DNA of 56,260 nt. Origin: a virus. This document shows, piece by piece, positions 6,102 through 46,986 of this stretch. The notes under the pieces were generated by a model. That model was not told the DNA's origin and made no database searches. It was given only the letters and a program-made list of their open reading frames with translations. The stretch lies in IMG/VR virus record IMGVR_UViG_3300042564_007410, positions 1-56,260 of that record. One strand, written 5' to 3'. The first letter of the stretch is position 1. Every line of letters starts with the position of its first letter. A program made the translations under genes and the position numbers.

Positions 6102-8494
<2,393 letters not shown>

Positions 8495-21878: not shown

Positions 21879-22106
21879 ATGGATCCAATTAAAGGCGAGG
21901 GAAAACCTCAATTAAATATTAACCTATCTGATGCACCATATCTAGAATGCGAAGAGTGTCAAGGCAAAGTATTTGATGAAAAAATGATGATTAAAAAAGT
22001 TTCCAAATTTATGACAGGCTCTGAACAGGATTCAATTGTTCCTGTTCCTGTACTTGCTTGCTCTAAATGTGGTCATGTTAACGAAATGTTTAAACCAAAA
22101 ATATGA
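21879..22106 (+). CDS. Small zinc-ribbon protein
   Basis: A 75-residue protein with two Cys pairs, LECEECQG (about 22-29) and LACSKCGHVN (about 58-67), the pattern of a zinc ribbon. A basic stretch (KKVSKFMTG) lies between. Possible roles are nucleic-acid or polymerase binding; nothing more specific can be seen. It overlaps the DNA polymerase start by 4 nt. Confidence 0.72.
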   Translation: MDPIKGEGKPQLNINLSDAPYLECEECQGKVFDEKMMIKKVSKFMTGSEQDSIVPVPVLACSKCGHVNEMFKPKI

Positions 22107-23524
22107 TAATAGGCGCTGAAGTATTAAATGATAATATTTTAACTATCTCTTACTACAACGATAAGGGAAAAATTGAATTCATTAAAAAAAGATTAATGGA
22201 TCATGAAATGTATAATTGGGTAGAATCTAAAACTCCAACCGCCACTAAAAATTGGAATGGAGCACACGTGAAAAAAGGTCAATCTGCTGGACAATACATA
22301 AATCAATTTAGAATACAAGAATTAATTCAAGAAAAATTAACAGCAGAGGAACTTGAGCTAGTTTACAATTTTGATAATTTTCCTAAAAAGACTTATCTTG
22401 ATATTGAGATTAAATTAATTGATGATTCCTTTCCAGAACCAGAAAAAGCTAGAATGCCAGTTGGACTTATTTCATTTTGTAATGAAGATAATGTTACCTA
22501 TATTCTCTCTATCTTAAATACAGACGATCAGCCAGATGGTCTTACTCCAGAACAAATAGTTCAAATGGAAAAAGACGTTAATTCATATTTTAGAAAAACT
22601 GTTCCTAAGAAACCAGAAGATGCTCGTTTATTCAATCAAGACTTTAAAATTAAATATAAATTCTTTAAAAGTGAAGATGAGTTAATGGCTTTCTATTTTC
22701 ATAAAATTATGCCTCATTTTAATTTTGTGACTGGATGGAACGTAACTGAATTTGACTGGAAGTATTTAATGAATCGTGGTAAAAATCTTAAAATCGATAT
22801 GATGGAGAATATGCCAACTCGTTCAACTGTTTCTAAAGTTAAGATTCCAACTCATCTAGGTGTACTTGATTACATGCAAGTATTTGAAAAGATGAAACCA
22901 TATAAAGTTGTAGAAAACTATAAACTTGATTATATTGCTGATCTTGTTCTAGGCACAGCCAAATTACATCATGATTATTCTTCATTCATGGAATTTCAAA
23001 AAGATACCTATCTTTTTACTATGTATAACGTAATTGACGTTATTCTTGTAAAATTAATTGAGGATAAGCTTGCACTAATGGACGTAGCCTTTGCTATGGC
23101 AAATGTCGCTCAAGTAGAAGTAAACAAAGTATTTAGTCCAGTATATATTGCTGAGATCTTAATGTGTCGTGAATTCCTAAATAAGAATCAAAAAATGATG
23201 AAACTTCCTTGGGGAGAAGAGGTACTTGATGGAACCTATGCTGGAGCTTATGTAAAAGATCCAATTCCAGGTTATTATAATGCTATTGCATGTTATGACT
23301 TTTCATCAATGTATCCAAATATTCAAATTCAATTTAATATTTCGCCAGATACTTTCCTTGGAAAAACTGATCAAGTTAAGCGAGATGGAACTGAAATCCA
23401 TACTAAAAATGATACACTATTTTCAAATAAAAGTGATTCAGTTGCTCGAAAAATTCTTACTCGACTCTATGATGAGCGTATAAAAACCCAAGGCGAAATT
23501 AAACAATTAAAAAATTCAAAATAA
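22103..23524 (+). CDS. 43A: DNA polymerase family B, N-terminal half only (T4 gp43-like)
   Basis: The product has 473 residues against about 900 for T4 gp43. It contains the 3'-5' exonuclease domain: ExoI YLDIEIKL (about 100), ExoII FVTGWNVTEFDWKYL (about 209-223) and ExoIII YNVIDVILVK (about 308-317). Palm motif A is CYDFSSMYPNIQIQFNISP, with catalytic D399. It then stops at LKNSK in the fingers region, before motif B (K-x3-N-S-x-Y-G) and motif C (D-T-D-S). Neither is encoded anywhere in this window. Split gp43 genes are known in some Aeromonas T4-like phages. The second half must be elsewhere or the enzyme is dead. Confidence 0.9.
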   Translation: MIIGAEVLNDNILTISYYNDKGKIEFIKKRLMDHEMYNWVESKTPTATKNWNGAHVKKGQSAGQYINQFRIQELIQEKLTAEELELVYNFDNFPKKTYLDIEIKLIDDSFPEPEKARMPVGLISFCNEDNVTYILSILNTDDQPDGLTPEQIVQMEKDVNSYFRKTVPKKPEDARLFNQDFKIKYKFFKSEDELMAFYFHKIMPHFNFVTGWNVTEFDWKYLMNRGKNLKIDMMENMPTRSTVSKVKIPTHLGVLDYMQVFEKMKPYKVVENYKLDYIADLVLGTAKLHHDYSSFMEFQKDTYLFTMYNVIDVILVKLIEDKLALMDVAFAMANVAQVEVNKVFSPVYIAEILMCREFLNKNQKMMKLPWGEEVLDGTYAGAYVKDPIPGYYNAIACYDFSSMYPNIQIQFNISPDTFLGKTDQVKRDGTEIHTKNDTLFSNKSDSVARKILTRLYDERIKTQGEIKQLKNSK

Positions 23525-32066: not shown

Positions 32067-34657
<2,591 letters not shown>

Positions 34658-43524: not shown

Positions 43525-43707
43525 ATGTTAAAAAAAATATTTCAATCGCGTCTTTCAAAAAGGGAACTTTTAATAATCGCTGAATGTTGTAGACAAGTTT
43601 CTGATTCAATGAGTAAGGAAAATAATAAAAGTCCCCTCTCTCCTGAAATTAGTCAAATACACCAAGATATTCAACAAATAGTTAAAAAACTGGAAAAATC
43701 TAAATGA
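43525..43707 (+). CDS. Hypothetical small helical protein
   Basis: A 60-residue basic helical protein (MLKKIFQSRLSKRELLIIAECCRQVSDSM, then ISQIHQDIQQIVKKLEKSK). No motif. It is coupled to the split helicase fragment by an ATGA overlap at 43704, suggesting it belongs to the same transcript. Confidence 0.6.
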   Translation: MLKKIFQSRLSKRELLIIAECCRQVSDSMSKENNKSPLSPEISQIHQDIQQIVKKLEKSK

Positions 43708-43868
43708 CCGAAATCCCTCTTGAGTTTTCACCAAGACCCCAACAGGTAGAAATACTTGATTTTGTAAAATCTTCAATTAGTGAAGGTAAAAAATTTATCA
43801 TGGTTGATGCTCCGACCGGGTGTCTTACAAAAAATGAAAAAATTAGAATATATAAATTAAAAAAATGA
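43704..43868 (+). CDS. Helicase N-extein fused to a 15-residue N-terminal split intein
   Basis: A 54-residue gene. Residues 1-39 are the start of an SF2 helicase: FSPRPQQVEILDFVKSSISEGKKFIMVDAPTG, ending in the first half of Walker A (A-P-T-G). Residues 40-54, CLTKNEKIRIYKLKK, are an intein N-terminus: Cys1 followed by the Cys-Leu-x-x-x-x-x-Ile pattern of block A, then a stop. The rest of the intein and helicase start at 45025. Joining TG to TGKS from the second gene restores APTGTGKS. Such an N-intein is far shorter than usual (about 100 residues) but has a precedent in the VidaL split intein of a T4-like helicase, as I recall it. Confidence 0.9.
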   Translation: MTEIPLEFSPRPQQVEILDFVKSSISEGKKFIMVDAPTGCLTKNEKIRIYKLKK

Positions 43869-45510
43869 TTTATGGATTCTAATAAGTATCTTGAAATTTG
43901 TAGAAGCGCTCGACTGCTTAAAAATAACATATCGTATTTTACAGTAAAGGAATTTTTGGAAAAATTTAAAATTGACTTAAATATAAATTATGATAAAATT
44001 GATCAGTTAATCGCTAATATTTTATCTCAAGATTTATCAAATGAGCATATTACGCTTCAAAAATTAAATTTAAAGTATAAAAAAACATCTAAGGATTATT
44101 GGATTATTCGAGGATGGGATGAAAAATATTCAATCAGAAAAGCAAAAGAAGCAAATCAGATATATTCTCATTCAAGAAGACTAGAGAAAAATGGATATTC
44201 TCAGGAAGATATTAAGAAGATCATGGCTGATTCTTTTAGTAAAGGAATCGCTACTCTCAAGAAAAGAAAAGATTATTCAGATATTATTAAAAAACGAAAT
44301 AGGGGATTAACTCGAAATCGATATATTAATACAATAAATCCATTAACCGGATTATTATATACGTCTGAAGAATCTGAGAAAAAATATAAAGAAGATCAAC
44401 GAAAGGCTTCGCAGTCTGCAAATCTAAGTAGGAAGCCTGAATCATTTAATACTAAAATCGAATATTATTTAGCTAAGGGCTTATCTTTAGAAGATGCCCA
44501 ATCTGCTCTATTTGAACGCCAAATAAAAAATGGTCTAGACTATTATATCAATAAATATGGAATAGAACAGGGAACCGTTAAATATAATAATCGTATTGCA
44601 AAATACAGTAAAAAAATAAAAGATGCAAGATCGTCTTTTCCAGAAAAATGGAAAACTTCCAGTAAACGATATAGTAATAGTTCTAAGCGATTTTTTGATA
44701 ACTTAATTAATGATATTGATTATCTAAAAAATTTAACTATTTTCTATGCAAATAACGAACATTTCATATATGATAAAATCAATAAAAAAATATATTTTTA
44801 TGATTTTTATATTGAAGAATTAAATATTATAATTGAATATCATGGAATAGTCTGGCATCCTAAGCATCGTGATCAACCTGGCTGGATCCACCCATATACT
44901 AAGGAGACTTCTGAAAAATACTATGATTTAGATATTCATAAAAAAATACTTGCAAATAGTTTTGGTATTGATGTTATCGCAATATTTGAAGATGAGATAA
45001 CAACTAATCGTAATAATATAATAAATGAACTACACAATCGAATTAACACGTACCGTAATCGTAAATGATTTAAAACATTATTATAGTGACGAAATATTTA
45101 TTAATTTATCTGATTTTGACCTAAATGAATTTTTTACAAACCATGTCAATACTCATAGTGAGGAAATAACAATTAAAGATTTCTATGAGTTACCTGAAGA
45201 TTCACATTTATTAATTGAATCATTGGATGGATATGTTAGAGTTGGTGAACGAATAAAAAAGAATAACTTAGAGTGCTATACTTTAACTTTAAAAGATAAT
45301 CGTAAATTATCTGGTGCATTTAATCATTTAGTTGAAACTGAAAGAGGCTGGGTTAAATTAAAAGAACTATCATCCAGTGATTATGTTTTAACTACTTCTG
45401 GTTTTATTCAAGTAAAAAATATACGACAAATTAAAACGCAAGACGTTTATGATTTAGAATGTTTACATCCAAACCATCGATATTTATCAAATGGCATATC
45501 TAATCACAAT
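43821..45510 (+). mobile_element. Split-intein cassette with homing endonuclease
   Basis: The inserted element as a whole. It runs from intein Cys1 (TGT 43821) through the N-intein stop, the Vsr-like homing endonuclease (43872-45068) and the 162-residue C-intein to its final Asn (45508-45510). Removing it would leave an unbroken helicase frame across the P-loop. This is the fractured-gene arrangement described for metagenomic phage genes, with the endonuclease gene in the break. Confidence 0.85.
43872..45068 (+). CDS. Free-standing homing endonuclease, Vsr-like (EDxHD type)
   Basis: A 398-residue protein in the gap of the split helicase. The nuclease domain is C-terminal: a segment NSSKRFFDNLIND (about 274-286), then KIYFYDFYIEELNIIIEYHGIVWHP (about 306-330) with Asp, Glu322 and His324, then YYDLDIHKKILANSFGIDVIAIFEDE (about 351-377). 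This Asp, E-x-H-G and D-x-x-K layout is that of Vsr/PD-(D/E)XK nucleases and matches the EDxHD homing endonucleases linked to split inteins. The N-terminal 270 residues are Lys/Arg-rich and probably bind DNA. It starts 3 nt after the N-intein stop and overlaps the next gene by 44 nt. Confidence 0.82.
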   Translation: MDSNKYLEICRSARLLKNNISYFTVKEFLEKFKIDLNINYDKIDQLIANILSQDLSNEHITLQKLNLKYKKTSKDYWIIRGWDEKYSIRKAKEANQIYSHSRRLEKNGYSQEDIKKIMADSFSKGIATLKKRKDYSDIIKKRNRGLTRNRYINTINPLTGLLYTSEESEKKYKEDQRKASQSANLSRKPESFNTKIEYYLAKGLSLEDAQSALFERQIKNGLDYYINKYGIEQGTVKYNNRIAKYSKKIKDARSSFPEKWKTSSKRYSNSSKRFFDNLINDIDYLKNLTIFYANNEHFIYDKINKKIYFYDFYIEELNIIIEYHGIVWHPKHRDQPGWIHPYTKETSEKYYDLDIHKKILANSFGIDVIAIFEDEITTNRNNIINELHNRINTYRNRK

Positions 45511-46986
45511 ACTGGAAAATCTTATGCTGCAATTATGATCGCTGAATGGTATCGCAGTGAACATTCAAAAAAAGCAAAAACTGATATTGTAACAAATACT
45601 AAAATTCTACAGGATCAATACGTAAAGGATTTTAAATTTGCCGCAAATCTTAAGGGTAAGAATAACTATTGGTGTCGTACTCAAAATATGGGATGCGGTG
45701 ATGCACAAGTTATCAATAAAGCAAATGGTGCTCGCTGTAATATTTGTCCACATAAAATTGCACAATCTAAATTCTTAAAGAGCCCAGTAAGTCTTGCTAA
45801 TTTCCACCTAGTAACTGCCTATTCAATGTATTCACCAGATATGATGATTGAGCGTAGTTCTAAACTTTTAATTATTGATGAGGCACACGCTTTTGAAGAG
45901 ACATTTTGTGATTTTATTCTCTCTACCTATTCTGAACGAAGTTTAAAAATACTTGATGTATGGCAAGAGTGGATGGGGCGGGATCTTGACAATATTTCAT
46001 CACTTAGTGAATTATCTGATTGGACAAAAGACGTATTAGTTCCACTACTTGGCCAAAAGGCAGAAGACCTATTAGATGAGGCTAAGGAAACTAGAGCTAA
46101 GAAGAAAAAGATTGAACTAATTAAAAAAGCAGATCATGTTGATAAATCAATGTGCAAATACAATCGTTTTGTAAATGATAGAGAAAACTATAAAACAAAT
46201 TGGACTTTCGAAAAGGATATTGACCAATACGGCAAAACTAAAATTCTAGTTGAACCTATTTGGGGAAACCTATATCTTAAAGAATTATTTTGGGACCAAT
46301 ATGACCATGTAATCTTAATGTCAGGTACACTATTAGATCGTGAACTATTTTCATTTATTATGGGAATTGAGGATCATGAATCTACTTATTTAGCACTGCC
46401 TTGTCCATTTAAAGCAGAGTCTCGTCCAGTAATCTATGCAAAATTTGGTAAAATGTCATACTACAATAAAAAGGAGACATTTGCTAGAGCTGTGCCAATT
46501 ATTGGAAAGATTCTTGAAAAGAATCATGAGCATAAAGGAATTATCCATACTTCAAATTATGAACTTAGTAAATGGATTCAATCTTCAATTAAAGACAAGC
46601 GACTCTTATTTCATGACTCACTTACTCGTGAAAAAACATTAGAGACTCATTTAACCTCTCAATTAGAGACTGTCCTAGTTTCACCATCCATGATAAATGG
46701 TGTCGACTTAAAGGATGAACTTTCTCGTTTTCAAGTAATCCTAAAAATACCTTTTCCTAATCTTGTTAGTACAAAGATTAAACGCCGACTTGATACTCGT
46801 CCAGAATGGTATAATTGGAAGACCCTGGTTGATCTTCTTCAAGCATATGGTAGATCAATCAGAAATGATGACGATTGGGCAGAGACATATATCTTAGACG
46901 AATGTTTTGATCAAATCCTTGAAAATAAAAATGTTCCTCAATATTTCCTAGATGCACTTAAAATTAAAAAATTACTTAAAAAATGA
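45025..46986 (+). CDS. C-terminal split intein fused to DinG/XPD-like helicase C-extein
   Basis: A 653-residue gene. Residues 1-162 are the intein C-part: block B-like FNHLVETERGWVKLKELSSSDYVL (about 100-123), block F VYDLECLHPNHRYLSNGI and block G SNHN, with catalytic His161-Asn162. Thr163 is the first extein residue in TGKSYAAIMIAEW, the second half of Walker A. The helicase follows: Cys217, Cys224, Cys238 and Cys241 (iron-sulphur type spacing), LLIIDEAHAF (D285), ILMSGTLLD, and motif VI QAYGRSIRNDDDW. This is an SF2 DinG/XPD-like 5'-3' helicase. It functions only after trans-splicing with the 43704 product, giving about 530 residues. Confidence 0.92.
   Translation: MNYTIELTRTVIVNDLKHYYSDEIFINLSDFDLNEFFTNHVNTHSEEITIKDFYELPEDSHLLIESLDGYVRVGERIKKNNLECYTLTLKDNRKLSGAFNHLVETERGWVKLKELSSSDYVLTTSGFIQVKNIRQIKTQDVYDLECLHPNHRYLSNGISNHNTGKSYAAIMIAEWYRSEHSKKAKTDIVTNTKILQDQYVKDFKFAANLKGKNNYWCRTQNMGCGDAQVINKANGARCNICPHKIAQSKFLKSPVSLANFHLVTAYSMYSPDMMIERSSKLLIIDEAHAFEETFCDFILSTYSERSLKILDVWQEWMGRDLDNISSLSELSDWTKDVLVPLLGQKAEDLLDEAKETRAKKKKIELIKKADHVDKSMCKYNRFVNDRENYKTNWTFEKDIDQYGKTKILVEPIWGNLYLKELFWDQYDHVILMSGTLLDRELFSFIMGIEDHESTYLALPCPFKAESRPVIYAKFGKMSYYNKKETFARAVPIIGKILEKNHEHKGIIHTSNYELSKWIQSSIKDKRLLFHDSLTREKTLETHLTSQLETVLVSPSMINGVDLKDELSRFQVILKIPFPNLVSTKIKRRLDTRPEWYNWKTLVDLLQAYGRSIRNDDDWAETYILDECFDQILENKNVPQYFLDALKIKKLLKK

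What the first reader, a model, noticed from the sequence alone, without database searches (positions are those of the whole stretch)
43704..46986. Helicase broken in its P-loop by a split intein with a homing endonuclease gene in the gap
Seen: a 54-residue gene ends APTG then Cys-Leu-x-x-x-x-x-Ile and a stop. A Vsr-like endonuclease gene follows. The next gene opens with intein C-terminal blocks ending SNHN and continues TGKSYAAIM into a DinG/XPD-like helicase. Joining the exteins gives the exact Walker A APTGTGKS. Known: inteins favour such conserved sites, and fractured genes with split inteins and endonucleases have been described from phage metagenomes. Inference: the phage needs protein trans-splicing to make this helicase. 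This would be a self-contained mobile system in a T4-like phage.
Basis: partly seen in the sequence, partly recalled or inferred. Interest (0 to 1): 0.95.

Follow-up and report, generated by a model that had tools for sequence, protein, structure and literature searches.

The report
Phage helicase split by mobile intein
A T4-like phage carries a DNA helicase gene cut in two at its ATP-binding loop by a mobile cassette, whose two intein pieces should splice the protein back together and whose DNA-cutting enzyme spreads the cassette; close relatives with the intact gene, and one matched pair with and without the cassette, show that it moves, although splicing itself has not been demonstrated.

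Summary
A 54-aa gene (43704-43868) ends APTG|CLTKNEKIRIYKLKK; a 398-aa endonuclease gene follows; a third gene (45025-46986) opens with 162 intein residues ending SNHN|TGKS and continues into a DinG/XPD-type helicase. The 15-aa N-intein and 162-aa C-intein form an atypically split intein of the VidaL type (profile to PDB 6VGV E 1.5e-47; C-intein model pLDDT 91, VidaL top fold match). The endonuclease is Vsr/I-Bth0305I-like, with residues in register with the Vsr active site. It is not an assembly error: the full cassette recurs in three other IMG/VR contigs, and 51 related loci carry the uninterrupted gene. Mobility is well supported: the cassette is 87-93% identical between two phages whose flanking helicase is only 72% identical, and in a near-isogenic occupied/empty pair changes cluster within 13 bp of the site (Fisher P 1.4e-6), including Val to Thr at the +1 residue needed for splicing. 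The kind is known (fractured genes; VidaL-type inteins); this host gene was not found described. A signature search, able to see only P-loop sites, shows the same intein type in several other phage NTPase families, often with a related endonuclease. Splicing and cleavage remain untested.

The parts
43704..43820 (+). N-extein: first 39 residues of the helicase, ending in the first half of Walker A (VDAPTG)
   Evidence: Continuous with the C-extein in 51 empty-site relatives
43821..43868 (+). N-intein, 15 aa CLTKNEKIRIYKLKK plus stop; Cys1 nucleophile
   Evidence: Same or one residue different in L016, L024, L026; resembles VidaL IntN and the PhoH-gene IntN of LR756500
43872..45068 (+). Vsr/I-Bth0305I-like homing endonuclease gene, 398 aa, catalytic domain about residues 290-398
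   Evidence: Profile match to Vsr structures, fold match to 1vsr and 3r3p, D311/H324/H329/D354 in register with Vsr D51/H64/H69/D97, dN/dS 0.19-0.24
45025..45510 (+). C-intein, 162 aa: about 45-residue helical N-terminal extension, then the Hint domain without its first strands; ends SNHN
   Evidence: VidaL profile match E 1.5e-47; AF2 pLDDT 91; Foldseek top hit 6vgv
45511..46986 (+). C-extein: remaining 491 aa of the DinG/XPD-type helicase, starting with Thr+1 and the second half of Walker A (TGKS)
   Evidence: phrog_2488 DNA helicase E 2e-85; Helicase_C_2 E 3e-16; DinG/rad3 models below cut-off

Best explanation
A mobile cassette has inserted into the Walker A loop of a phage DinG/XPD-type helicase gene, right after APTG. 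It is a VidaL-type atypically split intein (15-aa N-piece, 162-aa C-piece) with a free-standing Vsr-like homing endonuclease gene in the gap. The three genes are translated separately. The positively charged N-intein docks into the acidic C-intein and completes a Hint domain. Class 1 trans-splicing (Cys1, block B His, penultimate His, terminal Asn, Thr+1) then removes the intein and joins the exteins, rebuilding APTGTGKS and a 61.7-kDa helicase. Unspliced, neither piece has a complete P-loop, so splicing should be needed for ATPase activity. The endonuclease cuts cassette-free helicase genes of co-infecting phages, and repair copies in the cassette with a short flank, replacing the usual Val codon by the Thr codon needed at +1. 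Shown by sequence: anatomy, homology, fold of the C-piece, intact alleles, transfer as a unit, clustered flank changes, purifying selection. Inferred: splicing, DNA cleavage, need for splicing.
For: Fused intein hits VidaL 6vgv at E 1e-10 and the C-intein profile at E 1.5e-47; C-intein model pLDDT 91, top fold match VidaL, rmsd 1.3. Block B His, penultimate His and terminal Asn invariant in 36 relatives. Contiguous homologues at the same P-loop position exist in UvsX. Endonuclease: Vsr profile match, 1vsr and I-Bth0305I fold matches, catalytic residues in register. 51 intact empty sites; same cassette in three more contigs. Cassette 87-93% identical but exteins 72% between L016 and L024. Flank changes clustered at the site in L024/L025, with Val to Thr at +1. 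HEG and IntC under purifying selection.
Against: No biochemical proof of splicing or cleavage. IntN and IntC could not be modelled together here. The endonuclease model is confident only in its C-terminal domain, and its fold E-values are weak (0.016-0.035). Only three distinct cassette lineages are known. The 25-nt flank boundary was chosen after looking at the data. The window is a 56-kb fragment, so a second helicase copy elsewhere in the genome cannot be excluded.
Confidence: 0.93

Rival explanations
1. Degenerate element: the insertion broke the gene, splicing no longer works, and the phage lives without this helicase.
For: Splicing has not been tested here.
Against: IntC dN/dS is 0.08-0.17 and HEG 0.19-0.24; the catalytic residues and all reading frames are intact in all four cassettes, and the C-extein is still conserved in them.
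Confidence: 0.04
2. RNA-level element: the endonuclease lies in a group I or II intron that is spliced from the mRNA, and the protein ends only resemble an intein.
For: Homing endonucleases in phages often lie in introns (general knowledge).
Against: No Rfam match in the window; only 3 nt lie between the N-gene and the endonuclease, and the endonuclease overlaps the C-gene by 44 nt, leaving no room for an intron core; the flanks encode a Hint domain.
Confidence: 0.01
3. Assembly error that joined unrelated pieces.
For: The window is one metagenomic contig.
Against: L059 is identical over 5,887 nt across the N-gene/endonuclease junction; three further contigs carry the whole arrangement, in two diverged lineages.
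Confidence: 0.01

Closest known systems
VidaL atypically split intein (PDB 6VGV/6VGW; IntN 16 aa according to PMC13014065)
   Same: Closest solved structure by sequence, profile and fold; same split position early in the Hint domain; the VidaL sequence itself lies at a UvsX P-loop in L073, L107, L111 and L125, and L111 has a Vsr-like endonuclease in the gap.
   Different: Host gene is a DinG/XPD-type helicase, +1 residue is Thr rather than Ser, IntN is 15 aa, IntC has an extra helical N-terminal part; about 28% identity between the C-inteins.
Fractured genes with split inteins and a Vsr-like homing endonuclease family (Dassa 2009, known from general knowledge and citations; paper not held)
   Same: Gene in two pieces, split intein at the break, Vsr/I-Bth0305I-type endonuclease gene between the pieces.
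   Different: From general knowledge the described cases are split at the canonical site (N-piece about 100 aa); here the break comes after 15 intein residues.
PolB16 OarG split intein (PMC10189870)
   Same: Natural atypical split with a 15-aa IntN and 168-aa IntC.
   Different: Uses Ser at positions 1 and +1 and lies in a DNA polymerase gene; weak profile match only (E 1e-4).
Tenacibaculum phage PTm1 DNA polymerase locus (NC_049340)
   Same: Annotated intein-containing split polymerase precursor, a VSR endonuclease related to the window's, then a second polymerase ORF.
   Different: Different host gene; its intein split position was not examined here.
I-Bth0305I (PDB 3R3P), EDxHD homing endonuclease family
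   Same: Catalytic-domain fold match, probability 1.00.
   Different: Weak E-value (0.035) and no full-length homology shown.

Membership tests
Intein (Hint domain, class 1) | Hint fold | tested here: met
   C-intein model pLDDT 91; 59 PDB matches at E <= 0.001, the listed ones inteins or intein-like domains
Intein (Hint domain, class 1) | Catalytic residues Cys/Ser 1, block B His, penultimate His, terminal Asn, Cys/Ser/Thr +1 | tested here: met
   Cys1 in IntN; H101, H161, N162 invariant in 36 relatives; Thr+1 in all four cassettes
Intein (Hint domain, class 1) | Insertion at a conserved site whose removal restores the host protein | tested here: met
   51 uninterrupted relatives read APTG|V/TGKS at the site
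Intein (Hint domain, class 1) | Protein splicing activity | not testable with these tools
   Needs expression experiments
Atypically split intein, VidaL type | Short IntN (about 15-37 aa according to PMC13014065) on a separate polypeptide, sequence related to VidaL | tested here: met
   IntN 15 aa with its own stop; IntC profile matches VidaL at E 1.5e-47
Fractured gene with homing endonuclease (Dassa type) | Endonuclease gene of the Vsr-related family lying between the two host-gene pieces | tested here: met
   Position, Vsr profile, 1vsr and 3r3p fold matches, residues in register
Fractured gene with homing endonuclease (Dassa type) | Canonical split position (IntN about 100 aa) in the cases described | tested here: not met
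   IntN is 15 aa; whether this feature defines the class could not be checked because the paper is not held
Homing endonuclease | Mobility of its own gene into cassette-free alleles | tested here: met
   Indirect: cassette far more similar than flanks between L016 and L024, clustered flank changes in L024/L025
Homing endonuclease | Site-specific DNA cleavage | not testable with these tools
   Needs purified enzyme
Group I or II intron | Intron RNA core around the endonuclease ORF | tested here: not met
   No Rfam match at gathering score; 3-nt gap and 44-nt overlap leave no room

The most novel reading that the evidence does not exclude
The element is one of a distinct clan of phage mobile elements: VidaL-type inteins broken after about 15-30 residues, with a Vsr-like endonuclease lodged at that break, adapted to the Walker A loop and settled in about eight NTPase families (UvsX/RecA, DnaB, DinG/XPD, PhoH, Clp, FtsH-like AAA, UvrD-like, gp46/SbcC-like). 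The clan would pass between forms that are split with an endonuclease, split without one, and contiguous, making it a system for testing how split inteins arise. Whether intein specialists already recognise this class could not be checked.
Probability: 0.55. Interest if true: 0.7.

Novelty: new member of a known kind. Interest (0 to 1): 0.58.

Why it matters
It gives a near-isogenic occupied/empty pair plus other cassette-bearing lineages for a fractured gene, so homing of a free-standing endonuclease with a split intein can be tested directly, including the idea that flank co-conversion supplies the required +1 residue. It extends ultra-short split inteins, used in protein labelling, to a host gene not found described elsewhere, with a Thr+1 junction. 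The related loci also show the VidaL intein, a biotechnology tool, in its natural setting: a phage UvsX P-loop, in one contig with an endonuclease in the gap.

Tried and rejected
Intron hypothesis: Rfam scan empty. Assembly artefact: rejected by L059 and three other contigs. Pfam alone identified the endonuclease poorly; profile and fold searches were needed. Scans with the closely related HEG and IntC alignments found almost only the known cassettes; a degenerate splice-junction pattern gave far more. The automatic search for N-inteins went through several versions: the first expressions were too strict and were loosened; even the last missed the DinG cassettes, which one search lists, so the class counts are approximate. 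Dassa 2009 and Burton 2020 are not in the paper library; no held paper mentions UvsX together with split inteins. Upstream flank identity among the three occupied lineages was not above that of empty pairs, so the shared-flank argument rests on the downstream side and on the L024/L025 pair.

Full report
OBSERVATION. The first encodes 39 helicase residues ending VDAPTG, then CLTKNEKIRIYKLKK and a stop. The second (398 aa) starts 3 nt later. The third overlaps it by 44 nt and encodes 162 residues ending SNGISNHN, followed by a 491-aa helicase part starting TGKSYAAIM. The joined exteins give DAPTG-TGKS and 61.7 kDa.

HELICASE. The third gene matches phrog_2488 DNA helicase at E 2e-85, Pfam Helicase_C_2 and, far below equivalog cut-offs, NCBIfam DinG and rad3 models. 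It has a DEAH motif and four cysteines spaced as in Fe-S DinG/XPD helicases (read from the sequence; the Fe-S role is general knowledge, not tested).

EMPTY SITES AND RECURRENCE. A search with the C-extein in IMG/VR returned 57 loci. Of the 54 examined at the site, 51 read straight through it as APTG|VGKS or APTG|TGKS, and three (L016, L024, L026) carry the cassette, with the same order and nearly the same lengths. A further contig, L059, is identical to the window over 5,887 nt covering the N-gene and most of the endonuclease. Assembly error is excluded for practical purposes.

INTEIN. The fused IntN+IntC sequence hits VidaL (6VGV) at E 1e-10; a 36-member C-intein profile hits it at E 1.5e-47. 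The C-intein model (mean pLDDT 91.3) has VidaL as top Foldseek match, rmsd 1.3. Block B His, penultimate His and terminal Asn are invariant in the 36 relatives. Contiguous homologues exist at the same P-loop position in UvsX, for example SCTP-2 and L083, L098 and L104, which is independent evidence that the two pieces belong to one intein. IntN has net charge +5 and the first 60 residues of IntC -10, which fits charge-assisted docking, though this is not general in the family: the L088 N-piece is -2.

ENDONUCLEASE. A 22-member profile matches Vsr structures at E 0.003 over the catalytic domain. The model is confident only in about the last 110 residues; its relevant fold matches are 1vsr and the I-Bth0305I catalytic domain 3r3p, both probability 1.00 but E 0.016 and 0.035. 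D311, H324, H329 and D354 fall in register with Vsr D51, H64, H69 and D97 (the role and numbering of the Vsr residues are general knowledge, and the H324 column is not conserved across the wider family).

MOBILITY. Between L016 and L024 the cassette is 92.6% (HEG), 89.4% (IntC) and 87.5% (IntN) identical at DNA level, whereas the exteins on the two sides are 72.6% and 71.6% identical; HEG dS is 0.23 while helicase dS is saturated. The window's cassette has been apart longer: its HEG is no more similar to theirs than its helicase is. L024/L026 and the empty L025/L027 share 94% of the helicase C-extein DNA, yet 10 of the 25 nt adjoining the site differ, against 6% elsewhere (Fisher P 1.4e-6; the 25-nt boundary was chosen after inspection). 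The changes include GTC (Val) to ACT (Thr) at +1. Of 29 dereplicated empty alleles, 26 have Val there and 3 Thr; all four occupied alleles have Thr. Three occupied lineages share 14 of the 15 nt downstream, reached by 0.8% of comparable empty triples. The simplest reading is homing with short co-conversion that brings the needed +1 codon. Loss in the L025 lineage would be the opposite direction, but explains the clustered flank changes less well.

SELECTION. dN/dS is 0.19-0.24 for HEG and 0.08-0.17 for IntC, so both are maintained.

THE WIDER FAMILY. Extein searches and inspection assign host genes to UvsX/RecA, DnaB, Clp, FtsH-like AAA, PhoH, UvrD-like and DinG/XPD; L063, found with the HEG, adds a gp46/SbcC-like gene (by inspection only; no Pfam match). 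Vsr-like endonucleases occupy the gap in the DinG, one PhoH, the gp46-like, many UvsX and several DnaB cases, and lie beside the Clp and another PhoH C-intein; other split forms have short gaps (18-141 nt) without one, and some are contiguous. L073, L107, L111 and L125 carry the VidaL intein itself, in UvsX; L111 has an endonuclease in the gap. Inteins and endonucleases cluster mostly by host gene. The DinG endonuclease is nearest that of PhoH in the huge phage LR756500, whose capsid protein is also the window's nearest in the phage collection.

MECHANISM AND LIMITS. Trans-splicing that restores the P-loop, plus endonuclease-driven spread, is by far the best account. Splicing, cleavage and the need for splicing are inferences. 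The window record is a 56-kb fragment, so another helicase copy cannot be excluded. By element type this is a new member of a known kind. The host gene, and a 15-aa split with an endonuclease in the gap, were not found described in the papers held, but key papers (Dassa 2009, Burton 2020) could not be read.

Noticed in passing
window 22103-23524: The DNA polymerase gene covers only the N-terminal half (473 aa; matches 71-488 of an 856-position family and nearly all of a 502-position family); no C-terminal half was seen among the listed ORFs.
   Followed up: partly
window 45025-45160 and L081, L105, L143: The C-intein has a helical N-terminal extension of about 45 aa that overlaps the endonuclease gene; in L081 and L105 the same region looks like a helix-turn-helix.
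   Followed up: no
L119: FtsH-like AAA gene with a split intein at the P-loop and, further on in the same protein, a second long intein match.
   Followed up: no
L070 (Salicola phage SCTP-2): UvsX with two contiguous inteins, one at the P-loop and one downstream.
   Followed up: no
L064: Topoisomerase II large-subunit gene split by an intein with a long N-piece and short C-piece, with a related endonuclease between.
   Followed up: no
L111 and L073: The VidaL intein lies in a phage UvsX gene; one contig has a Vsr-like endonuclease in the gap, another only about 58 nt.
   Followed up: partly
window 6860-8494: ORF that reads like a GroEL-type chaperonin in the phage contig.
   Followed up: no
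window 33242-34657: ORF with collagen-like GPTGPT repeats, next to probable structural genes.
   Followed up: no
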